From contig CALWUJ010000013.1 of NCBI GenBank assembly GCA_944384725.1, positions 1 to 49,868 on the forward strand: a DNA stretch of 49,868 bases. Reading direction: 5' to 3'. The position numbers were made by a program, and so were the translations under genes. Below are positions 15,139 to 29,033 of the stretch, piece after piece. The stretch's first letter is position 1; each line of letters starts with the position of its first letter. Origin of the DNA: an uncultured Agathobaculum sp. (GTDB lineage: Bacteria > Bacillota > Clostridia > Oscillospirales > Butyricicoccaceae). Under the pieces are notes generated by a model. The model searched no databases, was not told the origin of the DNA, and saw only the letters and a program-made list of their open reading frames with translations.

Positions 15139-16113
15139 TTACTTCAGGCCCGCGGTGATAATTGCCATCTGGTAAACCTCGTCCGCATTGCAGCCGCGGG
15201 ACAGGTCATTGATCGGCGCGTTCAGACCCTGCAGGATCGGGCCATAAGCTTCGAAGCCGCCCAGACGCTGCGCGATCTTATAGCCGATGTTGCCGGCGTT
15301 GATGTCCGGGAAGATGAAGGTGTTAGCCTGACCGGCAACCGGGGAGCCCTTGCACTTGGTAGCTGCAACGACCGGAGAGAATGCAGCGTCAAACTGCAGT
15401 TCACCATCGACAGCAAGATCCGGTGCAGCAGCCTTGGTCTTTTCGGTTGCATTGCGCATCATATCAACTGTGTCGCCCTTGCCGGAGCCCTTGGTCGAGT
15501 AGGACAGCATGGCAACCTTGGGATCGATGCCAAAAGCCTTTGCGGTCTTGGCGGTCTCGATTGCGATTTCGACCAGATCATCCTCACCCGGATTGATGTT
15601 GATGGCGCAGTCGCCCATTGCGTACATCTCGTCGCCGCCGTCCTTTGCGTCGCGGCGCAGAATGAAGCAGGAGCTTACGATCTTGTTGCCCGGCTTGGTC
15701 TTGATGATCTGGAGCGCCGGACGAACGGTGTCGGCCGTGGAGTAAGTAGCGCCGCCGAGCAGAGCGTCCGCCTTGCCCATCTTGACCAGCATCGTGCCAA
15801 AATAATTGCCCTTTGCGAGCGCAGCGCGGCACTGCTCCTCAGTCATCTTGCCCTTGCGCAGTTCAACCATCTTGGCAACCATTGCGTCCATTTCCGGATA
15901 GGTTGCGGGGTCGATGATTTCCATTCCCTCAATGTCGAAGCCGCCAGCCTGAGCCGCTGCCTTTACTTCGTCCACATTACCGACCAGAATGGAATCCAGC
16001 AGGCCGTCCTTCTTCAGACGGGAAGCAGCCTCAAGGATACGGGGATCGGGGCCTTCGGTGAATACGATTTTGCGCTTGTCAGCTTTCAGCGTGGCAATCA
16101 AATTTTCAAACAT
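15139..16113 (-). CDS. pta: Phosphate acetyltransferase
   Basis: The 324-aa single-domain enzyme converts acetyl-CoA and phosphate to acetyl phosphate and CoA. Family segments are clear: IVFTEGPDPRILEAA at the N-terminus, GGATYSTADTVRPALQIIKT in the middle and VAGQANTFIFPDINAGNIGYK near the C-terminus. Length is normal for the short Pta class. GGAGGAGAG precedes the ATG. Acetate kinase, often next to pta, is not in the window, so the pathway partner must be elsewhere. Confidence 0.95.
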   Translation of the reverse strand: MFENLIATLKADKRKIVFTEGPDPRILEAASRLKKDGLLDSILVGNVDEVKAAAQAGGFDIEGMEIIDPATYPEMDAMVAKMVELRKGKMTEEQCRAALAKGNYFGTMLVKMGKADALLGGATYSTADTVRPALQIIKTKPGNKIVSSCFILRRDAKDGGDEMYAMGDCAININPGEDDLVEIAIETAKTAKAFGIDPKVAMLSYSTKGSGKGDTVDMMRNATEKTKAAAPDLAVDGELQFDAAFSPVVAATKCKGSPVAGQANTFIFPDINAGNIGYKIAQRLGGFEAYGPILQGLNAPINDLSRGCNADEVYQMAIITAGLK

Positions 16114-16214: not shown

Positions 16215-16315
16215 GTATTATTTTGAGTAGATTCTGAGTAATTCTTGTATCATTCTTTGGAGGGGTTGCTTTATCAAAAATCTGGGCAAAATAGGAGCAG
16301 AAAGGGTGTGATAAG

Positions 16316-16504
16316 ATGCAGGTGATACGGTATTTGAACGGCAGACGCCTGCACGGCGTAATGCCGCCGCTGCTGCTGGATCAGGAGGGAATCGGGGCGC
16401 TGCTCAGTGCAGCGCGCAGCAGGCAGCAGCTTCCATTGCCCGATACCGCCCCCTCTGCTATACTGGAGGCGGAGGGATGCAGTCTCGGAAGGGATGAGTT
16501 ATGA
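16316..16504 (+). CDS. 62-aa small protein coupled to recombinase 1
   Basis: The ORF encodes 62 residues beginning MQVIRYLNGRRLHGVMPPLL. Its stop overlaps the start of the recombinase gene by ATGA, a sign of translational coupling. An AAAGGGTG site precedes the ATG. No known family is recognised. A short protein in this position could be an accessory or directionality factor for the recombinase, by analogy with SprB of phage SP-beta (58 aa). That is inference from size and position only. Confidence 0.65.
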   Translation: MQVIRYLNGRRLHGVMPPLLLDQEGIGALLSAARSRQQLPLPDTAPSAILEAEGCSLGRDEL

Positions 16505-17877
16505 AGCATACAGCGCTTTATTTGCGCGTTTCAACCGAGGCACAGGCGGATGAGGGCTATTCGCTGGCAGCGCAGGCGGAAAAGCTGGAGGCCTATTGCC
16601 GGATGAAAGGCATTATGCAGTTTCAGCGCTATGTAGACGGCGGTTTTTCCGGGTCGAATCTGACGCGTCCGGCCATCACGGAGCTTGTGGAGGCCATCCG
16701 CAACGGCAATGTGGAGCGTGTGGTGGTTTACAAGCTGGACCGCCTGAGCCGCAGCCAGAAAGATACGCTCTATCTCATTGAGGATGTTTTTTTGCCGCAT
16801 GGTGTGGACTTTGTGTCCATCAATGAAAATATCGACACCGGCAGCCCATACGGACGCGCAATGATCGGTATTTTGTCCGCTTTTGCGCAGCTGGAACGTG
16901 AAAACATTTTTTTGCGTACGCGTATGGGCATGGTGGAACGCGTCAAACAAGGGTTTTGGCCGGGCGGCGGTAAAATTCCGTTCGGGTATGACTATGATGC
17001 GGACAAGGGCATTCTGGTGCCGAACAGCGACGCGGATACCGTGCGCGAAATCTATGCACGCTATCTGGAAGGGCAGTCGACAGGACGGATCGCCCGCGAA
17101 TTAGGGCTAAAGTATGAGCATCTGGTGCGGCAGATTCTGCTGCGGGAAAGCAACACGGGTGTCATCGTATACCGTGGCGAGACCTATCGCGGACGGCACG
17201 AGCCGTTGGTCGATCCGGATACGTTTGCGCGTGCTGCGCGTCGTTTGCAGCGGTCGGATAAGCCGCGTGCTGCGGCTTCAAATAAGCTGCTCACTGGGCT
17301 TCTGGTTTGCGGCCATTGCGGAGCGAAAATGAGGTACCAGAAATGGGGCAGTGCAGGCGATAAGCTGGTGTGCTATTCAAGGGACAAGTCCAAGCCACAT
17401 TTGGTGCATGATGCGAACTGCCCCAATCGTGGGGTGATGGCGCGGCAGGTGGAAGAGGTCGTCATTCGTGACCTGTCCCGACTGGCTGCTGAGCCCGTTT
17501 CACTACGCAGAAGCAAAAAGGAGCCGGCAGAATGTCGCCGTGCACTGGAACGTGCGCAGCGCAAGCTGCGGCGGCTGTATGAGCTGTTTGCGGAGGGGGA
17601 GGATGACACTCTGCGGGATGCGATCACGCGCGCCAGACAAGAATGCAGCCGTGCGGAGCAGGCATTGGAGTGTGCCCAGCAGGCGGAGCAGCAGGAAGAA
17701 CAGAATGACGTGCAACAGGCGCTGCAAACGATCGGCTCTTGCTGGGACAAGCTAAGCGATGCGGAAAAGCAGGGGCTGGTGCGTGCCTGTGTGCAAAAGA
17801 TCGTGCTACAAAACGATAAAATCGAGATATTTTATGTTATGGAAGGCGCTGAGATGTGCCAATCCTCTGCGGGATAA
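16501..17877 (+). CDS. Large serine recombinase 1 (at the 5' break of sigG)
   Basis: The 458-aa protein is a complete large serine recombinase. The resolvase domain (residues 1-150) has catalytic Ser in LYLRVSTEAQ and the KLDRLSRSQKDTL and FAQLERENIFLRTR segments. Then come a Recombinase domain (about 155-260), a zinc ribbon (CGHCGAKM ... C) and a coiled-coil C-terminus. SpoIVCA, which excises skin from sigK, is of this class. The stop lies about 25 bp before the point where recognisable sigG sequence starts, so it is placed like a recombinase at the right end of an element inserted in sigG. No other element genes are seen to its left. Confidence 0.92.
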   Translation: MKHTALYLRVSTEAQADEGYSLAAQAEKLEAYCRMKGIMQFQRYVDGGFSGSNLTRPAITELVEAIRNGNVERVVVYKLDRLSRSQKDTLYLIEDVFLPHGVDFVSINENIDTGSPYGRAMIGILSAFAQLERENIFLRTRMGMVERVKQGFWPGGGKIPFGYDYDADKGILVPNSDADTVREIYARYLEGQSTGRIARELGLKYEHLVRQILLRESNTGVIVYRGETYRGRHEPLVDPDTFARAARRLQRSDKPRAAASNKLLTGLLVCGHCGAKMRYQKWGSAGDKLVCYSRDKSKPHLVHDANCPNRGVMARQVEEVVIRDLSRLAAEPVSLRRSKKEPAECRRALERAQRKLRRLYELFAEGEDDTLRDAITRARQECSRAEQALECAQQAEQQEEQNDVQQALQTIGSCWDKLSDAEKQGLVRACVQKIVLQNDKIEIFYVMEGAEMCQSSAG

Positions 17878-17902
17878 CTGTTTTCGACTTTGTATGTTCA
17901 TG
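17878..17902 (+). other. Inferred attachment-site half at 5' break of sigG
   Basis: Sigma-G homology stops abruptly here. From 17903 onward the frame reads PMIIGEIRRYLRD as in SigG, but the codons before it read CMFM instead of the conserved STYAV. The bases CTGTTTTCGACTTTG after the recombinase stop would be one arm of the site. The partner half-site is not in the window. Confidence 0.5.
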
Positions 17903-18460
17903 CCGATGATTATTGGGGAAATCCGACGGTATCTGCGTGATAATAGTGCGCTGCGGGTATCGCGCAGTCTCCGGGATACAGCTTACAAAGCGTTGCAAGC
18001 CAAAGAAGCGTTTGTGCGCGAGCACCAGCGCGAGCCGGATATTGTGGAACTGGCAAAGCTGATGGATATGCCGAAAGAAGAAGTGGTATTGGCGCTCGAT
18101 GCCATCCTTGACCCGGTATCGCTGTTTGAGCCGGTGTTTCACGATGGGACAGATACGGTCTGTGTGATGGATCAGGTGGGGGATAATAAAAATACAGATG
18201 ATCAGTGGCTCGCCAGCATTGCGCTGCGCGAAGCCATCGACAGCCTGAACGAGCGGGAGAAGCGTATTATCCGAATGCGCTTTTTCGAGGGGCGCACCCA
18301 GATGGAGGTGGCCGACGAAATCCACATTTCGCAAAACGAAAGGACGCAAATTTCACAGCCACAGAGCAGTATAGAGAAAATGCACTTTTCAAGGCCGCTA
18401 TCTGCATATCGAGGGGAATATGAGGTGGTTTACTACATAAACTGGCGGTTTCAAATATAA
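17900..18460 (+). CDS. sigG: Sporulation sigma factor SigG, internal segment with foreign tail
   Basis: Codons 17900-18330 encode the PMIIGEIRRYLRDN region, SRSLRDTAYKALQAKE, DPVSLFEPVFHDG, MDQVGDNKN and FFEGRTQMEVADEIHISQ. These are SigG-specific (SigF differs at each), covering regions 2.4 to the start of 4.2. Sigma-G directs late forespore transcription. The N-terminal ~95 residues are missing upstream. At 18331 homology ends inside the 4.2 helix-turn-helix, and the frame continues 42 codons of element sequence to a stop at 18460. The true C-terminus is at 27587-27647. As it stands the product could not bind core polymerase or a -35 element. SigG is a firm call; function requires rearrangement. 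Confidence 0.9.
   Translation: MPMIIGEIRRYLRDNSALRVSRSLRDTAYKALQAKEAFVREHQREPDIVELAKLMDMPKEEVVLALDAILDPVSLFEPVFHDGTDTVCVMDQVGDNKNTDDQWLASIALREAIDSLNEREKRIIRMRFFEGRTQMEVADEIHISQNERTQISQPQSSIEKMHFSRPLSAYRGEYEVVYYINWRFQI
18317..18330 (+). repeat. Left copy of 14-bp core direct repeat
   Basis: GAAATCCACATTTC is identical to 27573-27586 and lies at the exact point where SigG homology is lost. It is itself a short dyad, GAAAT-CCAC-ATTTC, and acts as the inferred crossover core. The following bases, GCAAAACGAAAGGA, form the left arm of the element end. Confidence 0.85.
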
Positions 18461-18506
18461 CGAGGGAAGTGCGGTGAAATGGAACGCTCTGCAATCCGAG
18501 AAAAGG

Positions 18507-18546
18507 AAAATGTGCCCATTGGCAAGCAGCCAATGGGCACATTTTG
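18507..18546. terminator. Strong hairpin near the left end of the element
   Basis: AAAATGTGCCCATTGG-CAAGCAG-CCAATGGGCACATTTTG is a perfect long hairpin with A/T flanks. It can terminate transcription coming from sigG or, in the circle, from the recombinase gene, and also the toxin-antitoxin operon from the other side. Confidence 0.85.
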
Positions 18547-18609
18547 TTGTCTTATGGATTGCCGGAGAACCGTATTACAGCTGAGCGCTTTTTTGTATGG
18601 CGAGATGCC

Positions 18610-18915
18610 TTAAAACAACAGCGCCATGTAATCCTGCCGGCCATCCAGCACGCGCGTGACCTCGATATGATCATCCTCCACCACACGGTAAAAGACGAGC
18701 TGCTTTGCCACCACCAAAAAACGCAGATCGGTTTCCACGGCAAATTTACGGCAGAGTTCCGTCCCCATATAAGGGTTATCCGTCAGCAGCATAATCGCGT
18801 CATATACACGCCGGGTCAGTTTTTTCGCAGCCGCCCCATTGCTGAGCGTTTCCGAAATATAGCGTTCCGTCGCCTGCATATCGTCCAGCGCGGTTTTCTT
18901 AAATAACACCTTCAT
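18610..18915 (-). CDS. RelE/ParE-family toxin
   Basis: The 101-aa basic protein has the RelE/ParE fold pattern: VLFKKTALDDMQATERYISE, then YMGTELCRKFAVETDLRFLV, and a C-terminal VFYRVVEDDHIEVTRVLDGR strand pair. Members are mRNA interferases or gyrase poisons. It overlaps the antitoxin gene by 4 nt (ATGA), the normal order antitoxin-toxin. In this context it may select against loss of the element (inference). Confidence 0.9.
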   Translation of the reverse strand: MKVLFKKTALDDMQATERYISETLSNGAAAKKLTRRVYDAIMLLTDNPYMGTELCRKFAVETDLRFLVVAKQLVFYRVVEDDHIEVTRVLDGRQDYMALLF

Positions 18916-19214
18916 TCAGACAGCCCCAGCAGCTTGCGCGCGTCGTCGGCATCATATACTTCGGCGCACTCGTCGCCTTTTTGCAGCTCTTTCATCAACC
19001 GCGATAGCGCCTTTGCCTTGATGATCTCGGCATTATCCGCGTTTACCGCGAACGGGAAACCGCCCGCATTGATCGACTGCTGGAAAAACACGTTGACCGC
19101 GTCCGTCAGCGTCAGACCGTTTTTCGCATAAATCTGTTCCAGCTCTTCCCGGATTTCCGGGTTCATGCGGATACGGAACATATCCGTTTTGGCAGAAGAA
19201 ACTACATTTCCCAT
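18912..19214 (-). CDS. RelB/DinJ-family antitoxin
   Basis: The 100-aa protein has a ribbon-helix-helix N-terminus (TDMFRIRMNPEIREELEQIY, then NGLTLTDAVNVFFQQS) typical of RelB/DinJ, and an acidic C-terminal half that would wrap the toxin. AAAGGAGG precedes ATG. It is the first gene of the operon and is expected to repress it by binding the upstream dyad. Confidence 0.9.
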   Translation of the reverse strand: MGNVVSSAKTDMFRIRMNPEIREELEQIYAKNGLTLTDAVNVFFQQSINAGGFPFAVNADNAEIIKAKALSRLMKELQKGDECAEVYDADDARKLLGLSE

Positions 19215-19236
19215 ACGTCATTCCTCCTTTGGATTT

Positions 19237-19265
19237 AGTATAACAAAAGATTGCCTATTTGTCAA
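19237..19265 (-). promoter_or_regulatory. Promoter of the toxin-antitoxin operon
   Basis: On the minus strand TTGACA (19260-19265), 17 bp and TATACT (19237-19242) give a near-consensus promoter. Confidence 0.85.
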
Positions 19266-19278
19266 AACTGTAGATACG

Positions 19279-19290
19279 TTGTAGCTACAA
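19279..19290. promoter_or_regulatory. 12-bp palindrome upstream of the TA promoter
   Basis: TTGTAGCTACAA is a perfect palindrome 14 bp upstream of the -35. It is a plausible operator for the RelB-type protein, or part of the divergent control region for the helicase. The rest of the 303-bp gap up to 19517 shows only weak promoter-like sequence (TTGACC at 19309). Confidence 0.45.
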
Positions 19291-19517
19291 AAATGCGTGC
19301 AATTGTTTTTGACCGCCTTATCTATTTGCACATATTTACACTTTTCAAAACCTGATTGAGCAAAACCATGCCTCAACTATGCAATACAGTGGTTTTCTCA
19401 ACCAATTTTCTATTCATCGATTTGCAGAAAAATTTCGCATTTTCGCAACGATCAGCCATTATCTTTTTACCATCCTCCAACATGAGATTAAATCTATTCT
19501 CTGAGGAGGACTTTTTT

Positions 19518-20786
19518 ATGGATATCAAACGGGAAATCAAATGCGCATTGCATGATCTGGGCTTTGACAAGCCGCGCAAGCATCAGGTTGCACCGATCAA
19601 GTCATTGACCGACAAACAGGATACCATTGTCATCGCCGGGACATCCTCCGGCAAGACAGCCATCTACCAGACCGCCGGACTGGTGCTGCAAGGGCTGACT
19701 GTGGTGGTGGAACCGCTGCTGGCGTTGATCTACAACCAAGTGCAGGAATTGCAGCAGAAAAGTATTCCTGCTGATTACATCGATTCCACACGCTCCAAAA
19801 CAGATGTGGACAAGATTCTCCGCAAGGCGCAAAAAGGCAAGCTGGCCTTTCTGTATGTGACCCCGGAACGGCTGCAAAACGAAGCCTTTATCTCTGCGAT
19901 GCAGCAGGCCGACCTTGCCCTGCTCGTGGTGGACGAGTGCCACTGCATCACCGAATGGGGCTACACTTTCCGGGACGCTTATTTGCACATTGGGACATTC
20001 GTTGCATGTCTGCCGCACAAGCCGGTGCTCTGCGCGTGTTCGGCAACGATTCTGGAGGACAATGTCGACGCGATCGTCCAGTCGCTGCACATGAAGTATC
20101 CTGTCCTTTTCCGCAGCGACCTCAAGCGGAATAACCTGATCTTGATGAAGAAGGACGTCACCAGCTCGAAAAGAAATTTGGAAAAGCGTCTGGAACATCG
20201 TCTCAAGGTTCTGAAACGCTGCATCGGGAAATATCATGGCACAGGCTCGGTCATGGTCTATGCGCTGACGACCGGCTATGTCGACGCCATCTCGAATTAT
20301 CTGGAGGAAACCTATCCCGGACAGGTGGCGCGCTGTCATGCCAAAATCCAGCCGGAAAAGCCGAAACGGCAGATGGAGCTGGATTTCCTGCAAGGGAACA
20401 AGAAGATCATGGTGGCGACTTCGGCGTTCGGCATGGGCATCGATGTGCCGGACATCGAGCTTGTCATTCACTTCAACACGCCGCTCAGCACGACCGACTA
20501 CATCCAGCAGATCGGCCGCGCCGGACGCGACGGCCGGAAAGCGCGTTGTATCCTGTTCTATGACCAAAACGGTGACGATGAGAAAATCGTCCGCAGCCTG
20601 CGCAAAAAAGCCGCGCAGACCTCCAAGCAAGCCGCGGATACGATCAAAGCGCGTTATGAACAAATGCAGGACTTCCTGTCCGACACCGGCTGCATGCGCA
20701 ATGCAGTCCTGCGCTATCAGGGACAGGACGAGCAGATCATCTGCAAATGCTGCACCAATTGCGCCAGAGAGAGAAAGGGGCGCTGA
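19518..20786 (+). CDS. RecQ-like SF2 helicase of the element
   Basis: The 422-aa protein carries SF2/RecQ motifs: motif I AGTSSGKTAIYQ, motif II VVDECHCITEWG, the C-lobe GTGSVMVYALTTGYVDAI and motif VI QQIGRAGRDGR. It ends with a cysteine cluster (CMRN...CKCCTNC) like the RecQ zinc module, but has no HRDC domain. The ATG at 19518 follows GAGGAGGA. The next gene starts 3 bp after the stop, so helicase and Rep-like protein form one unit, suggesting it unwinds element DNA during replication or mobilisation (inference). Confidence 0.88.
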   Translation: MDIKREIKCALHDLGFDKPRKHQVAPIKSLTDKQDTIVIAGTSSGKTAIYQTAGLVLQGLTVVVEPLLALIYNQVQELQQKSIPADYIDSTRSKTDVDKILRKAQKGKLAFLYVTPERLQNEAFISAMQQADLALLVVDECHCITEWGYTFRDAYLHIGTFVACLPHKPVLCACSATILEDNVDAIVQSLHMKYPVLFRSDLKRNNLILMKKDVTSSKRNLEKRLEHRLKVLKRCIGKYHGTGSVMVYALTTGYVDAISNYLEETYPGQVARCHAKIQPEKPKRQMELDFLQGNKKIMVATSAFGMGIDVPDIELVIHFNTPLSTTDYIQQIGRAGRDGRKARCILFYDQNGDDEKIVRSLRKKAAQTSKQAADTIKARYEQMQDFLSDTGCMRNAVLRYQGQDEQIICKCCTNCARERKGR

Positions 20787-20788
20787 AC

Positions 20789-21766
20789 ATGAAACGCAAC
20801 GACGGGATACATACTTTTTCGCTGAAAGCCCGCAGCAGCTATTCGGAAATCCAGAATATCCGCGCGCAGAATACCTGCATCCGCGGCAAGCGAGGCCGTT
20901 TTTCGCTCAATCAGAATTTCTGCATCGCAGACTATAAGGACAAGGGCGTCGAGATCTTATTGCACCAATCGCTGGTTCACCCCAGCTGGGTCACACTGAT
21001 CGTCAATCCGTCCTCGCTCTTAGTGGACAAATACCAACCAACCGGGTTGTTTTGCCCAACGGAACAGTTGATGACACAGTTGAAAGCGCGTCTGCGCATC
21101 ATTCTGGACGAAATCGGGCTGGATACACGTCTCAAGGCGTTCCGGCTGTCGCGCTGCGACCAGACGCGAGATCGATATTACAGCAGCGCGGACGAAGTTG
21201 CGAGTTGGCTTGGAATCTTCAAAAAATCGTGGCTTATGCCGCGCTATACGGCGGTTCCGTTCCCAAAAGATTCGGAATTCGATGAAAAGTGGAAGGGTGC
21301 GAATCAACATGCGTGGACGATTGCAAACAAAAGCTGCGCCTTTTCGGTGTATGACAAGACCTACGAACTGAAAAAGCGCCACGGCATCAAAATCCAGACG
21401 CACATCCTGCGGCTCGAGCTGCGGCTGTCCCGCAAACGTATCGTCCAGCTGTGCCGCGCGACCGCGTGGGACAATCAGCTGCTGGAATTGTTTGATAAGC
21501 AGGACACCCAACTGGACAAATTCCTGCACCGGCTCCATCTGCCGGAAAATATGCAGCTTGTCACGCGGGAGAAGGCGCTGGAAACCATCAATGCCTCTCG
21601 CTTTCGGGAAAAGACCCAAAAGAAGCTGCGCCGGATCGTGAAAAAAGCGAACGGCTGCGAAACGCTCGCAGCCGTCCAAAGGGAAACCCGGATCAAAAAG
21701 AAAGACTTTATGAAAATGTTGGGGAAATTTGAGGCGTTGGGGATTTGTCCCGTTGTCCTCCGTTGA
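20789..21766 (+). CDS. Putative replication-initiation (rolling-circle Rep-like) protein
   Basis: The 325-aa basic protein resembles plasmid/phage gpII- or Rep_trans-type initiators in layout. It has LKAFRLSRCDQTRD in the middle, then a CAFSVYDKTYELKKRHG segment and ILRLELRLSRKRI. The last two are the usual 'YDK...E' and 'R-E-x-R-L' patterns of that group. The C-terminal ~100 residues are helical and basic. No unambiguous catalytic tyrosine motif can be assigned by eye. It directly follows the helicase gene. The alternative is an unrelated DNA-binding protein. Confidence 0.45.
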   Translation: MKRNDGIHTFSLKARSSYSEIQNIRAQNTCIRGKRGRFSLNQNFCIADYKDKGVEILLHQSLVHPSWVTLIVNPSSLLVDKYQPTGLFCPTEQLMTQLKARLRIILDEIGLDTRLKAFRLSRCDQTRDRYYSSADEVASWLGIFKKSWLMPRYTAVPFPKDSEFDEKWKGANQHAWTIANKSCAFSVYDKTYELKKRHGIKIQTHILRLELRLSRKRIVQLCRATAWDNQLLELFDKQDTQLDKFLHRLHLPENMQLVTREKALETINASRFREKTQKKLRRIVKKANGCETLAAVQRETRIKKKDFMKMLGKFEALGICPVVLR

Positions 21767-21798
21767 TGGTACCGGCACGGAAACCCGTCTATCAAAAG

Positions 21799-21827
21799 AC
21801 AAGAGCCGGAGATACTCCGGCCCTTGT
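21799..21827. terminator. Terminator between Rep-like gene and SLH fragment
   Basis: ACAAG-A-GCCGGAG-ATA-CTCCGGC-C-CTTGT is a stable hairpin with one mismatch, followed by T-rich sequence on both sides. It can end both convergent units. Confidence 0.8.
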
Positions 21828-21834
21828 GTGTTTC

Positions 21835-22053
21835 TTATGTGTAGTTTTCGCAGAAGCGCATCAGCATGGTCGCTGCTTCGGCGCGGGTCGCCTGCCCCTG
21901 CGGGTTCAGATTCGCACCGTCGCCCTCGATAACGCCATCGCCGCACGCCCACTGCATCGCGGGCACGGCGTACTCGGAAACATCAAGCGCATCGGCGTAT
22001 TTCCATTCGCATCCATAACTGTAACATCGACCGGGCAACGAATCGTGATGACC
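21835..22053 (-). pseudogene. C-terminal fragment of an SLH-domain protein
   Basis: The last ~50 codons match the end of an S-layer-homology module (DALDVSEYAVPAMQWACGDG, then NPQGQATRAEAATMLMRF). The 5' part is missing: the homology ends where the IS30 fragment starts at 22054. It is a remnant of a larger surface-protein gene cut by the IS or by a later deletion. Confidence 0.75.
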
Positions 22054-22230
22054 TTATTCTGATGAACAGATTCTCCTATTTGCTGACGAGATCAACGCCA
22101 CTCCCAGAAAACGTCTGGGCTACCGCACGCCTGAGGAACTGTTTGAGCTACAGCTGGATAGTATCTACGCCACCAGCTGACAGTGCGCCTTATTCTGTTC
22201 AAGTGTTCAATTTGTTATTGCAATTTTCGA
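22054..22230 (+). mobile_element. IS30-family fragment A (3' end)
   Basis: It encodes only the last ~42 residues of an IS30-type transposase (SDEQILLFADEINATPRKRL, then TPEELFELQLDSIYATS, stop at 22180) and the IS right end TTGTTATTGCAATTTTCGA. The same sequence occurs inverted at 24394-24862. The 5' side is cut at 22054. Confidence 0.85.
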
Positions 22231-22233
22231 ATC

Positions 22234-22629
22234 GTGATAGAAACAATGCTGGAAGAAAAGCTTAGTTACAGTGAAACAGCACGTCGATTTGAGGTAAGCA
22301 ATCACCACCGTAGGATTGTTATATTGATTATTTACACAGAAAACATGATACTCATACTGATTGAGTTTTTTCAAAAAGAACTGGAGCGATATATCCGCAT
22401 GACAATTGTCTCGAGAGACAAAACCGGAAAATCTGCGCCGTACTTGCGCAGCGGGAAATTTTCAGGACAACAATTTTGCTTTGATGCTGGCTTGCACTAT
22501 GTGGACGGTACTCAGTGGCGCAACAAAAAGTATCCATTTGAAGTTACCTGCATGCTGCTATTGATAAGCGCCTATCTGTTAAATCATCGGTGCTATTGTT
22601 TTGTACGTTTCGGTTGTTATGGAATATAG
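22234..22629 (+). pseudogene. Degraded IS3-like OrfA remnant and junk
   Basis: The start of this stretch reads VIETMLEEKLSYSETARRFE, similar to the N-terminal helix-turn-helix of IS3/IS150 OrfA transposases. After about 30 codons the frame loses resemblance and becomes hydrophobic low-quality sequence. No intact transposase is present. The call is weak. Confidence 0.35.
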
Positions 22630-23522
22630 ATATTTCCAAACCCGTTTTCCTCATCCATATCGCTGGAATACCGTTCCCATGCGAAGACATCGTCGACGCG
22701 GTTCATCTCACGCCAAGTGATAGGGTTTAGGAAATCGGCCAATCCTTTGCCGAGCGGAAAGCCGGTGCCCCAATAGCTGCCCGTCCGTTCGCCCGCCCGG
22801 TCGACGGCATATGCCTCAAAAGGAACATGGCGCATACACGCGTCGTAGAACGCGAGCGGGTCGTCCTTCGGGAACACCATCAGTTCGTCGATGACTGCCT
22901 GCTCGGCGGGTGTGATCTCGTCGCCGGGGTAATAGACCGCCACAAAGCGTTCCTCTGCCCGGTGCGCGTAGGCCGCCGAGAGTTTGAAAAAGGCGAAATC
23001 CGTGCAGGCCGGGGCGACCTTACACAGACGCCGGTGTAGCAGCTGCTCGTCCGTGTCGAACAGGTAGGTGTGCCGATAGGTTGGGACAGCATCAGCCGGG
23101 AAGCCGATGTACAGATATTTGGCGTCTGCAGGCGGCGTCCAGCGCGTCATAACTCGAGGCCGCTCGCGCATTTGGTTGGTCTTAGTTTGCAGCCATAGGA
23201 TCTGGTTGCCCGTGGTGATGCCGAAATAGTCCTCCTTGCGGCATTTGCGCCGCGCACGTCGGAAGTTTTGATGGTTGTACAGGCCGTCGTAAACCGACCG
23301 CTGCGGCGCATCGAAACAGGCTTGCTCCAGCGAGTCGCGGCAGACTTGCCGCAGTGAATCGTCCGGCGCGCATCCGCGATGCAGGATCAGCTTGCAGGCT
23401 GGAAAAGTCACGTCCGGCCAAGGCTTGTCCAAGACGGGTTCCGGGCAGTCCGGTCCGGGCAGTTCCAAAACAAACGGACCGCCCGCGCCTTGATTGGAAT
23501 AGAAGGTGATCGTCAGTGACAT
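22617..23522 (-). CDS. Hypothetical 301-aa protein of the element cargo operon
   Basis: The product starts MSLTITFYSNQGAGGPFVLE and is soluble, rich in aromatic residues and prolines, with several cysteines (C68, C72, C103 region) but no recognisable motif. It has an AAAGGAGAG ribosome site. It is the third gene of a minus-strand operon after two helix-turn-helix proteins, with a 15-bp gap. The composition looks like a structured single protein. No family is recognised. Confidence 0.65.
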   Translation of the reverse strand: MSLTITFYSNQGAGGPFVLELPGPDCPEPVLDKPWPDVTFPACKLILHRGCAPDDSLRQVCRDSLEQACFDAPQRSVYDGLYNHQNFRRARRKCRKEDYFGITTGNQILWLQTKTNQMRERPRVMTRWTPPADAKYLYIGFPADAVPTYRHTYLFDTDEQLLHRRLCKVAPACTDFAFFKLSAAYAHRAEERFVAVYYPGDEITPAEQAVIDELMVFPKDDPLAFYDACMRHVPFEAYAVDRAGERTGSYWGTGFPLGKGLADFLNPITWREMNRVDDVFAWERYSSDMDEENGFGNIYIP

Positions 23523-23537
23523 GTGCTCTCCTTTCTC

Positions 23538-23708
23538 TCACAGGTTTTCTTTCAAAAACAATCGAATGCTTTCCAGCGGAATTCTCCACTCCCGGCCAAC
23601 CTTGACGGCCGGGAGTTCTCCGTTTGCAATCATTTTGCGGATCTGTTGGCGGGTGGTCTTGAGCTGTGCGGCGGCTTCCTTGACCGTCAGGATCTCGCTC
23701 ATGCCCAT
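23538..23708 (-). CDS. Excisionase-like helix-turn-helix protein
   Basis: The 56-aa protein is a complete HTH_17/excisionase-type DNA-binding domain: LTVKEAAAQLKTTRQQIRKM, then ANGELPAVKVGREWRIPLES. Such Xis-like proteins bend DNA or regulate mobile elements. The start is ATG at 23708, with AAAGGAAG upstream. It overlaps the end of the previous gene by 10 bp. It may regulate the cargo or assist excision. A tyrosine-integrase partner is absent, so a regulator is the simpler view. Confidence 0.85.
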   Translation of the reverse strand: MGMSEILTVKEAAAQLKTTRQQIRKMIANGELPAVKVGREWRIPLESIRLFLKENL

Positions 23709-24034
23709 GGGCGGGACTTCCTTTCCGATCGATTGCCCCAAGGGGAACTGCTGGTCTTATTGCCCCAAGGGGATTTGTCTGGCTTGTATGGCTTGCTGCC
23801 CCAAGGGGCGTCCTTGTCTCCGTGCGGTCTGTTGCGCTGCTCCTTGTAGATGTGGTTGTGCAGCTTGCGCACCAGTACCTTGCGGAAGCCCCAGTTTCCG
23901 TACTGGTCCTCCTGCGGACGGATGTCGTACTTCTCGGCATAATGCCGAAGTGCGGCCTTGTCCATCTCGAATAGACGGCAGACCTCGTCGATCGTGTAAA
24001 AGTCTTTCATTTCGTTGTAATTGATGTATTTCAT
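23699..24034 (-). CDS. HTH protein with PWG repeats
   Basis: The 111-aa product has a MerR/HTH_17-like N-terminus (FYTIDEVCRLFEMDKAALRH) and a basic middle. The low-complexity tail holds PWG repeats (APWGSK, SPWGNK, SPWGNR, RPWA). Three of the repeats are encoded by the same 10-bp palindrome. An AAGGAG site sits before the ATG at 24034. It is the first gene of the three-gene operon and is probably DNA-binding. Function unknown. Confidence 0.7.
   Translation of the reverse strand: MKYINYNEMKDFYTIDEVCRLFEMDKAALRHYAEKYDIRPQEDQYGNWGFRKVLVRKLHNHIYKEQRNRPHGDKDAPWGSKPYKPDKSPWGNKTSSSPWGNRSERKSRPWA
23736..23808. repeat. Three CCCCAAGGGG palindromes
   Basis: The perfect 10-bp palindrome CCCCAAGGGG occurs at 23736-23745, 23763-23772 and 23799-23808 inside the PWG-repeat coding sequence. 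The copies encode the PWG tripeptide in each case, and the spacing is 27 and 36 bp. Confidence 0.8.
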
Positions 24035-24050
24035 GAAATACCGCTCCTTA

Positions 24051-24133
24051 CAGTGAATTGGGATTTGGCAGGTGGGTGAGACGCAACTCACGACATTTCA
24101 CGCTGCCTTATTTTTATGTTAGTCAATTCACTG
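24051..24133. repeat. Inverted repeat upstream of cargo operon
   Basis: CAGTGAATTG (24051-24060) and CAATTCACTG (24124-24133) are perfect inverted copies, with a smaller GTGAG...CTCAC hairpin between them, directly upstream of the HTH/PWG operon. It may be an operator region or long leader hairpin. The remaining ~260 bp to the IS fragment at 24394 shows no gene. Confidence 0.55.
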
Positions 24134-24393
24134 CAAAATGTGCTGTATTTCATGTGGGTTCGGCGATCAAAAGACGGTTTATTTCCATTTTCCACAGTAC
24201 AGATCCACAAGGATTGTGTTGCTTTCAACCGCCTGCAGGATCTCGGATAGGCTGGGCATGCGCTTTGCAGGCCGAAATTATTTATTATTATTGGGGTTTG
24301 ATTCTTGTGTAAGAAGTGAGGCATTCTGTCTAAATTTCTTATGATAATCTTGACGCATTGTTGAATTGCTTATTATACTTTACTATTTTAAAA

Positions 24394-24862
24394 TCGAAAA
24401 TTGCAATAACAAATTGAACACTTGAGCAGAATAAAGCGCGCTGTCAGCTGGTGGCGTAGATACTATTCAGCTGTAGCTCAAACAGTTCCTCAGGCGTGCG
24501 GTAGCCCAGACGTTTTCTGGGAGTGGCGTTGATCTCGTCAGCAAATAGGAGAATCTGTTCATCAGAATAATCGCGAATGGAACGTCCCTTGGGTAGGAAT
24601 CTACGTAGAATACGGTTGGTTCTCTCGTTGACAGGCCGCTCCCAAACAGAGTAGGGATGAGCAAAATAGATCTTCGTACCAAGATTTTCAAAAGCGGAGA
24701 AGGCCGCAAACTCACTCCCGTTGTCGGTGGTAATGCTGCGGAATACCTGAGAGAATTTCTCCCCATACTGCTCTTTGAGCTGCTCCATGGCAGAGGCAAC
24801 ACCATCCGTTGTTTTGCTGTCAATCCAAATAGAAAAATAACATCCGGTTAGTCGCTCTACAA
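24394..24862 (-). mobile_element. IS30-family fragment B (transposase C-terminal half)
   Basis: The minus strand encodes the catalytic C-terminal ~140 residues of an IS30 transposase: IVERLTGCYFSIWIDSKTTD, ITTDNGSEF (DDE motif), WERPVNERTNRILRRFLPKG and the same tail as fragment A, stop at 24444. The right end at 24394 matches that of fragment A but faces the opposite way. The 5' half is missing where truncated recQ begins. Confidence 0.85.
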
Positions 24863-25678
24863 TACCTGCGCATCGCAGACTTTGTAAAGTCGCTGCGCGA
24901 GAGACCGGTAATCGGCGCGTTTACAGCCACAGCAACGAGATCGACAGAGAAGCAGATCATCAACAGGCTTAGCATGGATGATCCGTTTATCTATCGTGGC
25001 AGCGTAACCCGTGAAAATATTCGACTTTCAGCAATCGAAGTCGGGCATGGACTGAAGGGGCGGAAAAATGCTGCTGTAATCGAGCAGCGCAAGCGGGAAG
25101 AAATCTGTAAATTGCTGAAAAGAAAATCACAAAAGGGAAATTGTGTCATATATTGTAACACGGTCAAGCGCGTGAAGCAAATGAAACGATTCCTGAAAAA
25201 AGAGGGGTTTCCCGTAGAAAGCTTTTATGGTGCGTGCCAAAACAAGGAAGAGAGGCTTCGGCGATTTGTATCTGGAGAGGTTCGTATCATGGTGGCGACG
25301 AACGCTTTTGGCCTTGGTGTGAACATTCCGAATGTGCGCCTTGTGATTCACCATTCTCCTTCGATCGGGCTGGATGCGTATGTGCAGGAGGCAGGACGCG
25401 CAGGCCGTAACGGTAAGCAGGCCGAGGCGGTTTTGCTATGGCACCCATACGATTTTACAATCAACCAAGGACTGCTCGAGAAGGCTAAAATGGATTTGAC
25501 CGGCCGAGAGCGCAAAGATCGTTTGGATGCGCTGGAGGCCCTGAAAAGGTATGCGCAGGATAAGGAACGCTGCCGATGGCGTATCATTCGAAAGTTTTTC
25601 GGGGAGAAAAAAGGGGATCGGTGTGAAGATCAATGTGACAACTGCTATCATGCTGAAAACAAGATCGGGAAATTGTAA
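24863..25678 (+). pseudogene. 5'-truncated RecQ helicase
   Basis: An open frame of 271 codons begins mid-domain with YLRIADFVKSLRERPVIGAF. It continues through the RecQ C-lobe (NCVIYCNTVKRVKQM, RIMVATNAFGLGVNIPNVRL, EAGRAGRNGKQ) and the zinc site CRWRIIRKFFGE...CEDQCDNC. Motifs I and II are absent: the break coincides with the end of the IS30 fragment, so one deletion removed both 5' ends. The remnant cannot be an active helicase. Confidence 0.85.
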
Positions 25679-25745
25679 GCCCAGCGGAAAGAGGTTTGCG
25701 TGTACCGCCAGATGTGCATACTAAACGAAAGAAGGAGGACACATC

Positions 25746-25925
25746 ATGAGGGAAGAGATTCGACGCGGTCAGATTTATCAAATTCTGGCGCTGAATGAAG
25801 AAATGTACAGAAATGGGTATGTTTCTCGCGAGGAACACGATTATGTGCGCCGTTTGCAGGCGAAAAAGTTGACGAATCTCCATGGACGCGATACAATAGG
25901 AGCACTAAAAAACGATTTGACGTAA
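25746..25925 (+). CDS. 59-aa SHOCT-like small protein before recombinase 2
   Basis: The ORF encodes 59 residues: MREEIRRGQIYQILALNEEM, then YRNGYVSREEHDYVRRLQAKK. The 'L-x-G-x-[VI]-[ST]-x-EE' pattern resembles SHOCT-type short C-terminal modules. GAAGGAGGAC precedes the ATG. The recombinase gene starts 15 bp after its stop with its own GAGGAGG. Its place is the same as that of the 62-aa ORF before recombinase 1, so it may be an accessory or directionality factor (inference). Confidence 0.7.
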   Translation: MREEIRRGQIYQILALNEEMYRNGYVSREEHDYVRRLQAKKLTNLHGRDTIGALKNDLT

Positions 25926-25940
25926 ACCGAGGAGGTAGAG

Positions 25941-27647
25941 ATGGACGTCCGCAAACTGGACGACCTGTTGGCGCAGGGCCGCAGCATTTTTGAAATGAAG
26001 ATTGCTGTGGCCTACTACGCCCGCGTGTCGACCGACAAAGACGAGCAGCTGAACAGTTTGGAAAATCAGCAGCGCTTCTATGAAGAATATATCCGCAGCA
26101 ACCCGAATTGGACGTTTGCAGGTGGTTATGTAGACGAGGGTATTTCCGGTACTTCGGTTGCCAAACGTGAGCAATTTTTGCAGATGATCGAAGATGCGGA
26201 GACCGGACAGTTTGATTTGATTGTCACTAAGGAGATCAGTCGATTTGCCCGTAATACACTGGACAGCATTCGGTATACCCGCGAACTGCTTCGTCACGGC
26301 GTCGGCGTGTTTTTCCAAAATGACAATATCAATACCTTTGATAAAGATGCTGAACTGCGGCTGACCATCATGTCCTCCATTGCGCAGGATGAGGTGCGCA
26401 AGCTGTCCGAACGCACCCGGTTTGGTTTCAAACGGGCGCAGGAAAACAGCGTGCTGCTGGGGCAGAACAATTTATTCGGCTATAATAAGGTGGATGGCAG
26501 ACTCGAGATCGTAGAGACTGAAGCGGAAATCGTTCGTGAGGTGTTTGAACGGTATGTTGCCGGCGAACTGGGGTTGCGTGCAATTGCCAACGATCTGGAC
26601 CGCCGGGGCATCACGGGAAAGCAGGGGAAGGCGATCACATATTCCACCCTATACGGAATGATCCGCAATCCCAAATACAAAGGATTTTATGCGGGACGCC
26701 GATATGCAACCCGCGATTATCGCGATGGCCGCAGCTATCGGCTGGACGCGGATAAGTGGATTGTACACGAGGACGAAAAGGTGCCTGCAATTGTTCCAGA
26801 ACCTCTTTGGGAAGAAGCAAATCGTCTGCTGGCAGAACGTGGGAAGACGATGAAGCAGCATGCGCAGGCATCGCAGAACCGCTATGCATACAGCGGCAAG
26901 CTGATCTGTGCCAAGCACGGCACCACCTTTCACCGCCATGTCTACAAGAGCAAACGTAGGGGCGAGGTCGAGTGCTGGAACTGCAAATTATACCGGCTCA
27001 AGGGCAAGCAGGGTGGATGCAGTTCCCCAACAATTTATAGCAGTGAGTTAGATCGGGTGCTGTCACGCGTATTCGAGCGGGTGATTGATGAAAAATCCGA
27101 AGCCATGCAGGAATATATACAGAACCTGAAAGATTTTGCAGCGCAGCAGGATCACGGTGCGGAACTGGAACGGCTGGCGCAGCAGATTGATGCGCTGACG
27201 GCGAAAAAGGAAAAATTGCTTGAGCTTGTGCTGGACGGCGCGCTTTCCAACGAGGAGTTCAAGCGGCGCAATGAGCAGTATAACGAGCAGTTGGAGGAAC
27301 TGGAGCAGCGGCGCAGCACGCTACAGAACGCCGGTCAGGATTTGGCGGCGCGCATCAAGCGGGTGGAGTCACTGTCCAAAACCATTGAACGGCAATGGGC
27401 CGCAAACTGCGGTTTTCCCCGCGAAATGGCCAAGGCGTTGGTCGACCATATTGTCGTTGACGCCGATGAAACCAACACCAAAATTTATCTGAATATTTGC
27501 CTGACGATGGACAAGGAATATCATGCGGAATATGTCAAACCCCAAGCCCGCAATTCCATCCTTTCGTTTGAGGAAATCCACATTTCACAGGCGCAAGTGT
27601 CCCGGCTGGAAAAGGGGGCGCTGGAGCATATTCGAAAGCGCATATGA
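25941..27647 (+). CDS. Large serine recombinase 2, ending in SigG C-terminus
   Basis: The 568-aa protein has the resolvase domain with catalytic Ser in YYARVSTDKDEQ, then EISRFARNTLDSIRY. A Recombinase domain, a zinc-binding segment (C...C around CAKHGTTF and CWNC) and a coiled-coil (about residues 410-480) follow. It is the right-end gene of the 9.3-kb element and surely its integrase/excisionase. The frame crosses the core repeat, so here its last 20 residues are those of SigG. In the excised circle the frame would instead continue at 18331 and end at 18460, giving 591 aa. Confidence 0.93.
   Translation: MDVRKLDDLLAQGRSIFEMKIAVAYYARVSTDKDEQLNSLENQQRFYEEYIRSNPNWTFAGGYVDEGISGTSVAKREQFLQMIEDAETGQFDLIVTKEISRFARNTLDSIRYTRELLRHGVGVFFQNDNINTFDKDAELRLTIMSSIAQDEVRKLSERTRFGFKRAQENSVLLGQNNLFGYNKVDGRLEIVETEAEIVREVFERYVAGELGLRAIANDLDRRGITGKQGKAITYSTLYGMIRNPKYKGFYAGRRYATRDYRDGRSYRLDADKWIVHEDEKVPAIVPEPLWEEANRLLAERGKTMKQHAQASQNRYAYSGKLICAKHGTTFHRHVYKSKRRGEVECWNCKLYRLKGKQGGCSSPTIYSSELDRVLSRVFERVIDEKSEAMQEYIQNLKDFAAQQDHGAELERLAQQIDALTAKKEKLLELVLDGALSNEEFKRRNEQYNEQLEELEQRRSTLQNAGQDLAARIKRVESLSKTIERQWAANCGFPREMAKALVDHIVVDADETNTKIYLNICLTMDKEYHAEYVKPQARNSILSFEEIHISQAQVSRLEKGALEHIRKRI
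27573..27586 (+). repeat. Right copy of 14-bp core direct repeat
   Basis: GAAATCCACATTTC, identical to 18317-18330. To its left is the element arm TCCTTTCGTTTG (27559-27570). To its right the sequence ACAGGCGCAAGTG resumes sigG codons. Confidence 0.85.
27587..27647 (+). CDS. sigG: SigG C-terminal segment
   Basis: These bases complete the split Ser codon and add QAQVSRLEKGALEHIRKRI and a TGA stop, the recognition helix of region 4.2 and end of SigG. Joined to 17900-18330 the frame is exactly in phase and reads ...MEVADEIHISQAQVSRLEKG. As it stands it is translated as the tail of recombinase 2. Confidence 0.9.
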
Positions 27648-28881: not shown

Positions 28882-28965
28882 ACGCGGTCACTCCTTTCAG
28901 CAAACTATACGAACATATTATATCAAAAAGCAGATGGTTTGTCATCCTTCTTGTAAAAAAACGCC

Positions 28966-28993
28966 TTGCTTTATCTTGGCAAAGTGCTATAAT
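28966..28993 (+). promoter_or_regulatory. Promoter of ilvE
   Basis: TTGCTT (28966-28971), 16 bp and perfect TATAAT (28988-28993), about 40 bp before the ilvE start. Confidence 0.75.
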
Positions 28994-29033
28994 GAAAGGG
29001 TACAAAACCTATAACAGAAAGAGTGAATCCACC

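What the first reader, a model, noticed from the sequence alone, without database searches (positions are those of the whole stretch)
17900..27647. sigG is split by a 9.3-kb serine-recombinase element with exact in-phase halves
SigG homology stops at 18330 inside the region 4.2 recognition helix and resumes at 27587 with QAQVSRLEKGALEHIRKRI and a stop. A 14-bp direct repeat GAAATCCACATTTC marks both junctions. Deleting 18331-27586 rejoins the frame without gain or loss of a base. The layout matches the sigK skin element, but in the sigma factor of the late forespore. I do not know of a described sigG-interrupting element.
Basis: partly seen in the sequence, partly recalled or inferred. Interest (0 to 1): 0.97.

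Follow-up and report, generated by a model that had tools for sequence, protein, structure and literature searches.

The report
Spore sigma-G gene in three pieces
In these gut bacteria the gene for sigma-G, a switch protein needed inside the developing spore, is cut into two or three pieces, each cut flanked by a site-specific DNA recombinase, so the cell probably has to rearrange its own chromosome to build the gene before it can make a spore.

Summary
The split at 18331/27586 is real but only part of the story. The window holds the middle (17903-18330) and the last 20 codons (27587-27647) of sigG; the first ~96 codons lie on another contig, downstream of sigE. So sigG is in three pieces, with two different large serine recombinases, one per cut. 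The genus is Agathobaculum. Cut 1 is found in 23 of 25 genomes, with recombinase, a small ORF and non-coding attachment arms conserved; the pieces are 112 kb apart in one genome and 757 kb, on opposite strands, in another. The same cut recurs in other Clostridia as 2.5-17 kb skin-like elements, inverted halves or dispersed halves. Cut 2 comes with a rec2 orthologue in 8 of 8 genomes. Element-side arms show attP/attB geometry, and the rebuilt attP resembles a natural attP beside a rec1 homologue in a 114-kb viral contig. The pieces are under purifying selection; one species nested among split ones has a scarless joined gene. Best reading: sigG is assembled by DNA recombination. No recombined form was seen (0 of 25); timing is unknown. 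Unlike skin, the target is a forespore gene.

The parts
15139..16113 (-). pta (phosphotransacetylase), left neighbour of the recombinase-1 unit
   Evidence: PF01515 E 1.8e-120; same neighbour in other species
16264..16293 (+). possible sigma-F-type promoter of the recombinase-1 unit: GGTTG-N15-GGGCAAAATA (consensus recalled)
   Evidence: -10 GGNNANAHTR 31-35 bp before the small ORF in 21 of 22 loci; the -35 is weak and the two-box score is hardly above shuffles
16316..16504 (+). small conserved ORF (62 aa) overlapping the recombinase-1 start (ATGA); candidate directionality factor, by position only
   Evidence: 22 of 22 rec1 loci, 63-100% identity; no Pfam or PHROGs hit
16501..17877 (+). large serine recombinase 1 (rec1), belongs to cut 1
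   Evidence: Resolvase, Recombinase, Zn_ribbon_recom domains; orthologue directly before the sigG middle piece in 22 of 22 loci
17882..17924 (+). attR1: element-side arm (TTTC at 17882) + core TGCCGATGA 17901-17909 + sigG-side arm
17903..18330 (+). sigG middle piece, in frame (profile positions ~95 to 243)
   Evidence: NF006071 95-246 E 5.8e-70, TIGR02850 91-243
18317..18330 (+). cut-2 core repeat, left copy; followed by arm CAAAACGAAAGG 18332-18343
18331..27586 (+). element 2 (9,256 bp)
18610..19214 (-). ParE-type toxin and RelB-type antitoxin genes, cargo of element 2
   Evidence: PF05016, PF04221
19356..21766 (+). RecQ-like helicase and Rep-like protein, cargo of element 2
   Evidence: PF00270, PF00271; PF02486 below its cut-off
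23538..23741 (-). HTH_17 / excisionase-like protein, candidate directionality factor of element 2
   Evidence: PF12728 E 2.8e-14; several PHROGs excisionase families
24974..25678 (+). second RecQ-like helicase piece, cargo of element 2
   Evidence: PF00271, PF16124
25941..27647 (+). large serine recombinase 2 (rec2); its open frame runs in frame into the sigG C-terminus
   Evidence: orthologue running into the sigG tail in 8 of 8 genomes with cut 2
27560..27586 (+). attR2: arm CCTTTCGTTTG (27560-27570) and core GAAATCCACATTTC (27573-27586)
27587..27647 (+). sigG C-terminal piece with stop codon

Best explanation
sigG is stored as three fragments; each cut is an attL/attR pair of its own large serine recombinase. 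rec1 (with its small partner ORF) is proposed to recombine the site behind the N piece (behind sigE, on another contig) with the site before the middle piece; rec2 recombines 18317-18330 with 27573-27586. Together these would give one intact, in-frame sigG. Shown: the anatomy, in-frame junctions, conservation of both recombinases and of the non-coding att arms, attP/attB geometry, likeness of the rebuilt attP to a natural viral attP, purifying selection on the pieces, and a scarless joined sigG in a species nested among split ones. Inferred: that recombination takes place in living cells, that it is tied to sporulation (possibly started by sigma-F), that it is reversed later because the forespore genome is inherited, and that the small ORF and the HTH protein are directionality factors. 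Where the pieces are dispersed, the reaction must be a large inversion (757 kb in G010) or must split the chromosome into two circles (pieces 112 kb apart on one strand in G012).
For: Pieces and neighbours. rec1 before the middle piece 22 of 22, small ORF 22 of 22. Element-side arms match sigG-side arms only at an offset of +4 bp (right 0.86, left 0.73; every other offset 0.57 or less; 20 pairs). In the 60 non-Agathobaculum loci, GAAA at the fixed place after the N piece in 9 of 11 and TTTC before the middle piece in 19 of 21 ends that my patterns could read. 42 of those 60 recombinase loci have a sigG piece in the stretch. Rebuilt attP of 7 species (of 20 with both pieces) matches the attP of viral locus L348 at 31-36 of 44 positions; attB of G020 in the same register 10 of 44; the spaced attP pattern hits one stretch in the viral collection, on the contig that carries the recombinase. 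dN/dS 0.071 (N) and 0.039 (M), no stops in 23 of 23 sequences each. Shine-Dalgarno match before the middle piece 2-3 of 6 (22 loci), before the N piece 5-6 of 6 (24 sequences). G020 has a scarless join inside a 100/100-supported clade whose other five members are split; G007+G020 as one group rejected, p-AU 0.00037. rec2 orthologue running into the sigG tail in 8 of 8 genomes with cut 2. gpr present in 25 of 25.
Against: No recombined product was seen: the attP-joined form of cut 1 is absent in 25 of 25 assemblies. Halves on opposite strands or far apart demand chromosome-scale rearrangement. Excision in the forespore would be inherited, which the documented cases are said to avoid. The promoter assignment is weak. 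Spore formation by the genus was not established here: two searches with three terms gave 0 papers, 23 papers hold 'Agathobaculum' and 'spore' (12 listed), and the passages seen in two of them say nothing on spores of the genus. The joined genes of G007 and G020 sit beside pta, not behind sigE-GNAT as a plain attL x attR product would, so further rearrangement or transfer is needed. 18 of 60 related recombinase loci show no sigG piece.
Confidence: 0.72

Rival explanations
1. Split protein: the pieces are translated separately and assemble into a working sigma factor, as the two-part SigO/RsoA factor of Bacillus does (recalled).
For: The N and middle pieces are conserved and under strong purifying selection and stay apart in the assemblies.
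Against: No good ribosome-binding site before the middle piece (2-3 of 6 in 22 loci); residues after the N-piece junction are not conserved as protein, frames and stops differ, whereas the DNA arm is; the C piece is about 20 codons at the end of a recombinase frame; recombinase and att arms would have no reason to persist.
Confidence: 0.08
2. Decay: mobile elements broke sigG and the genus is losing sporulation.
For: No joined form seen; sigK is also interrupted in this genome; sporulation of the genus not documented in what I read.
Against: dN/dS 0.04-0.07 and no stops in 23 of 23 sequences per piece; conserved non-coding att arms; gpr in 25 of 25; an exact in-frame joined gene in G020.
Confidence: 0.1
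3. Unregulated selfish insertions: recombinases use sigG as a conserved attB and the gene is joined only by rare spontaneous recombination, with no developmental control.
For: Related recombinases with a palindromic attP-like site lie on large viral contigs; promoter evidence for sporulation control is weak.
Against: The rec1 unit is kept with the split in 22 of 22 readable loci of the genus although nothing else but the small ORF lies between pta and rec1.
Confidence: 0.09
4. Assembly or binning artefact.
For: The window's assembly is a 78%-complete draft of 47 contigs.
Confidence: 0.01

Closest known systems
skin element in sigK (Bacillus subtilis, Clostridioides difficile)
   Same: A sporulation sigma-factor gene interrupted in frame by an element with a large serine recombinase at its edge, a short shared core and a small directionality factor (from passages of PMC6957869 and PMC10747680 and recall).
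   Different: sigK is a mother-cell gene and its excision is lost with that cell; sigG belongs to the forespore line. Here there are two independent cuts, and in Agathobaculum the halves of cut 1 lie at separate loci.
gin in gerE, vfbin in spoVFB, SPbeta in spsM, yin in yabG
   Same: Sporulation genes interrupted by recombinase-bearing elements and reconstituted (passages seen in PMC5595907, PMC10747680, PMC8270828, PMC6957869).
   Different: PMC6957869 says almost all such elements sit in mother-cell genes; sigG was not named as a target in the passages seen.
Phages with large serine integrases (SPbeta type)
   Same: attP/attB geometry with motifs displaced outwards in attP; viral loci L346-L348 carry rec1 homologues with palindromic attP-like sites behind the gene.
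   Different: In Agathobaculum only the recombinase unit and att arms are next to the sigG pieces of cut 1; no phage genes were found there (looked for named genes only).
DNA inversion switches (recalled)
   Same: Where halves are in opposite orientation (L238, L254; 757 kb in G010) one recombination would be an inversion that joins the gene.
   Different: Here inversion would join two parts of one coding sequence rather than flip a promoter or swap C-termini.

Membership tests
Skin-type sporulation gene-intervening element | Interrupts a sporulation gene so that exact rejoining restores the frame | tested here: met
   Both cuts in frame; scarless joined gene in G020
Skin-type sporulation gene-intervening element | Encodes its own site-specific recombinase next to the junction | tested here: met
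   rec1 and rec2
Skin-type sporulation gene-intervening element | Compact element between the two halves on one strand | tested here: not met
   Met for cut 2 in the window and for cut 1 in 11 of 13 non-Agathobaculum loci that hold both pieces; not met for cut 1 in Agathobaculum
Skin-type sporulation gene-intervening element | Excision during sporulation, circular form | not testable with these tools
   No reads or cultures; joined attP form 0 of 25 assemblies
Skin-type sporulation gene-intervening element | Target gene acts in the mother cell | tested here: not met
   Target is SigG by family models; that SigG acts in the forespore is established knowledge, also in passages of PMC6957869
Large serine recombinase / integrase | Resolvase + Recombinase + zinc-ribbon domains | tested here: met
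Large serine recombinase / integrase | attP motifs displaced outwards relative to attB | tested here: met
   Displaced by 4 bp on both sides; the usual 5 bp is recalled
Two-subunit sigma factor (SigO/RsoA-like) | Separate, independently translated subunits | tested here: inconclusive
   No good ribosome-binding site before the middle piece, judged by sequence only

The most novel reading that the evidence does not exclude
A germ-line developmental sigma factor is assembled in every sporulation cycle by reversible site-specific recombination between distant chromosomal loci (large inversions or temporary splitting of the chromosome), set off in the forespore by sigma-F and undone after germination. 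Phages or elements using sigG as their attB founded this repeatedly across Clostridia, and in Agathobaculum the recombination unit was kept as a host developmental device.
Probability: 0.3. Interest if true: 0.97.

Novelty: new variant of a known kind. Interest (0 to 1): 0.92.

Why it matters
Sporulation gene rearrangements are explained as harmless because they happen in the mother cell, which dies (passage of PMC6957869). Interruption of sigG, the forespore factor, breaks that rule and forces a choice among reversible DNA rearrangement, recombination before the cells divide, a split protein, or loss of sporulation, each testable in culturable gut commensals. It also points to sigG codons ~86-104 as a recurrent attB across Clostridia, may mislead annotation into calling such species sigG-less, and offers a family of large serine integrases with predicted att sites and a candidate small partner.

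Tried and rejected
A second intact sigG in the window's assembly: none among the matches listed. Reading G007 and G020 as the ancestral unsplit state: weakened, because G020 lies inside a supported split clade; the root of the genus is not secure, so G007 could be either. The recombined form: pattern of the joined attP in 25 genomes, none. A first attP scan had one base too many in the spacer, so its zero says nothing; the corrected scans are (one stretch). A shorter core pattern hit two stretches, the second (L412) with no recombinase or sigG match, i.e. probably chance. Promoter scoring: the sigma-F assignment for rec1 rests on the -10 alone; the two-box score averages 9.55 against 8.92 in shuffles, and a -10 match also occurs elsewhere in 8 of the 22 upstream stretches; G005 lacks the -10 although the place is covered. 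The gpr upstream alignment mixed true and false starts and was not used. Two phage-collection records similar to the recombinases: MT839977 is a bacterial fragment with recombinase plus sigG middle piece; MT837325 showed no sigG-like end. A strict motif search for the small ORF outside Agathobaculum found a candidate in 16 of 60 loci, some doubtful (L227, L237), so its generality is only suggested. 18 of those 60 loci had no sigG piece; what they join was not worked out. In the order survey nine genomes with only weak matches were not followed. Of the 34 followed, 17 were counted as split; G085, G229, G143, G208 and G173 were not, because a piece ends at a contig end or the other piece is missing; G387 has a full-length match; 11 had no SigG-grade match. 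Whether G007 or G020 carry rec1 elsewhere was not tested.
Full report
OBSERVATION. SigG models fit the two pieces (TIGR02850 positions 91-243 and 229-254). But the window contains no sigG start. Before the middle piece lies a large serine recombinase (rec1, 16501-17877), 25 bases away. The missing 5' part is on contig C6 of the same assembly (window = contig C13; 1.94 Mb, 47 contigs, 78% complete): promoter, ribosome-binding site and codons 1-96 at C6:23812-24099, behind sigE and an acetyltransferase gene and before an amidohydrolase gene. So sigG is in three pieces.

CUT 1 ACROSS THE GENUS. All 25 held genomes of the genus were searched. The cut at codon ~96 is present in 23: 20 with both pieces found, G008 and G009 with the middle piece only, G015 with the N piece only (these three are 76-83% complete). 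G007 and G020 are unsplit at this place. In 22 of 22 middle-piece loci rec1 (76-100% identity) stands directly before the piece; in 21 of 21 N-piece loci the amidohydrolase gene follows, and sigE precedes in 18 of 21. In 22 of 22 rec1 loci a small ORF (62 aa in the window) precedes rec1. The pieces are far apart: same strand, 112 kb, in G012 (two contigs); opposite strands, 757 kb, in the single-contig genome G010.

ATTACHMENT SITES. In 20 of 21 genus N pieces the end reads GTGCCGATG (G017 has one base different) and runs into a non-coding arm of the form AACgtacTTtGGGGAAAtCC; the middle piece is preceded by an arm of the form TTTCgACtTtgtatgTTCAT before CCGATGAT. The element-side arms repeat the motifs of the sigG-side arms, displaced outwards: over 20 species pairs the identity of the compared 10-base stretch peaks at an offset of 4 bp on both sides (0.86 right, 0.73 left), 0.57 or less at any other. 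That is the attP/attB relation of large serine integrases (usual offset of 5 bp recalled). The residues after the N-piece junction differ in frame and stop between species, so it is DNA, not protein, that is conserved there. Joining the two element-side halves gives a 44-bp near-palindrome. A scan of viral contigs with the rec1 alignment gave 66 loci, one of which (L345) holds a sigG N piece at its end. Locus L348, from a 114-kb contig, has directly behind its recombinase gene a 44-bp site (42 of 44 palindromic) that matches the rebuilt attP of the seven Agathobaculum species I tried (of 20) at 31-36 of 44 positions, while the sigG attB of G020 in the same register matches at 10 of 44. A spaced pattern of this attP finds one stretch in the viral collection, on that contig. 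L346 and L347 (147.6 and 114.9 kb) have similar sites. Of ten large proteins scanned from these three loci, L347 gave a DNA polymerase and a tail-fibre match, L348 two families of unknown function, L346 nothing; that they are phages with an unintegrated attP is my inference.

THE SAME CUT ELSEWHERE. In 395 genomes of the order (at least 90% complete) I re-examined 34 with weak best scores: 17 have a C-terminal SigG match starting at profile position 89-93, in families f1 (another genus), f2, f13, f16 and f20; five more have single pieces or pieces at contig ends, one is full length, 11 have no SigG-grade match. Of the 60, 27 recombinases stand before a middle piece on the same strand (22 of them within 90 bases), 13 stand tail to tail with an N piece, i.e. 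at the other end of the element, 2 are otherwise near a piece, and 18 have no sigG piece in the fetched stretch. Thirteen hold both pieces: 11 on one strand, as compact skin-like insertions (L215, L217, L219-L222, L224, L228, mostly named Flavonifractor, 3.1-6.4 kb; L225 2.5 kb; Ruminococcus L270 9 kb and L272 6.7 kb), and 2 in opposite orientation (L238; L254, Pseudoflavonifractor phocaeensis An507), where one recombination would invert about 3.7 kb and join the gene. G157 has the halves 17 kb apart on one strand. Fixed GAAA follows the N piece in 9 of 11, and TTTC precedes the middle piece in 19 of 21 ends that my patterns could read. Flavonifractor and the two Ruminococcus N pieces were not read by that pattern; they end STYGVP or STYAVP at the same place.

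CUT 2. Eight genomes have a middle piece ending at codon ~237-243: G000, G005, G006, G007, G021, G024 (genus) and G373, G157. All 8 have a rec2 orthologue (50-100% identity, 69% or more in the family) whose frame runs into the sigG tail. G010 and G012, searched without this cut, have only relatives of 37% identity or less; further relatives of up to 45% exist in genomes with the cut too. The arms around the core in the window are inverted repeats (CCTTTCGTTTG ... CAAAACGAAAGG). Middle and tail lie on one contig in G000 (9.3 kb), G005 (~23 kb) and G157 (opposite strands, ~86 kb); in the other five on different contigs. Element 2 of the window carries a toxin-antitoxin pair, RecQ-like helicases, a weakly Rep-like gene and an excisionase-like HTH protein.

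ARE THE PIECES FUNCTIONAL? Median dN/dS (Nei-Gojobori, my script; pairs with dS outside 0.05-2 dropped for N and M, from 2 up for rec1) is 0.071 for the N piece (206 of 210 pairs), 0.039 for the middle piece (144 of 210) and 0.113 for rec1 (158 of 190 pairs of 20 sequences); no stop codon in 23 of 23 N and 23 of 23 M sequences, the unsplit G007 and G020 included. gpr, a forespore gene and sigma-G target (recalled), is present in 25 of 25 genomes. The N piece has a GTATA-N15-GGGGAAAAT promoter in 23 of 23 genus sequences, G007 and G020 included, and a good ribosome-binding site; the middle piece has none. On a tree of pta, ilvE, sigE and the amidohydrolase gene (25 genomes, 4,091 columns, two to four genes per genome), G020 is sister to G004 (98/95) within a 100/100 clade whose other five members are split, and holding G007 with G020 is rejected (p-AU 0.00037). 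G020's sigG is joined at the core without scar. So an exact join has arisen and been kept, or, less likely, a joined copy was transferred within the genus. The joined genes lie beside pta (and ilvE in G020), not behind sigE, so more than one rearrangement was involved.

MECHANISM. The best-supported model is reassembly at the DNA level by the two recombinases. For cut 1 in Agathobaculum this must be an inversion or a splitting of the chromosome, since the halves are at separate loci. That may solve a problem: sigma-G acts in the forespore, whose genome is inherited, so loss of an element would be permanent; inversion, or re-integration after germination, is reversible. This part is inference. 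rec1 may be under sigma-F: a GGNNANAHTR -10 (recalled consensus) stands 31-35 bp before the small ORF in 21 of 22 loci, but the -35 is poor and the joint score is hardly above shuffles.

AGAINST. No assembly contains the joined attP (0 of 25), and no reads were available. Whether the genus forms spores I could not establish: 0 papers hold all three terms; 23 hold 'Agathobaculum' and 'spore' (12 listed) and 5 'Butyricicoccus faecihominis' and 'spore'; passages of PMC8140505 and PMC9723785 say nothing on spores of the genus.

LITERATURE. Passages of PMC6957869, PMC5595907, PMC10747680 and PMC8270828 were seen. They name sigK, spsM, spoVFB, spoVR, gerE, yabG and kamA as interrupted genes; [quoted passage not shown] Searches meant to find an interrupted sigG listed no paper that, by title or start of abstract, reports one; most subscription papers and all bioRxiv preprints are outside the library. 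I therefore class it as a new variant of a known kind.

Noticed in passing
Genome G000, contig C9 ~55250-56000 (L002): sigK of this organism also looks interrupted: homology begins mid-gene (..KYYASSAEQDDLISIGTIG) behind a stretch with what look like ParA- and Rep-like genes; in G001, G013, G015 and G018 the SigK match stops at profile position 212-213.
   Followed up: partly
L346, L347, L348 (viral contigs of 114-148 kb): Large viral contigs carry rec1 homologues with a palindromic attP-like site behind the gene, so phages that use sigG as attB probably exist.
   Followed up: partly
L214, L216, L218, L230-L232, L234-L236, L241, L245, L249, L253, L255, L259, L262, L268, L271: 18 relatives of rec1 have no sigG piece in the fetched stretch; some have a small RYxNG-type ORF before them. 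Their targets are unknown.
   Followed up: no
window 27697-30101 and L071-L073: The ilvE / stalk-domain gene pair to the right of sigG occurs in both orders and orientations among species, as if repeatedly inverted.
   Followed up: no
window 22062-24788 and L130: Inside element 2, transposase-like fragments appear in opposite orientation around genes that are inverted relative to the same element in G005.
   Followed up: no
L338 (MT839977): A record filed as a bacteriophage from human stool is a bacterial fragment with a rec1 relative before a sigG middle piece.
   Followed up: yes
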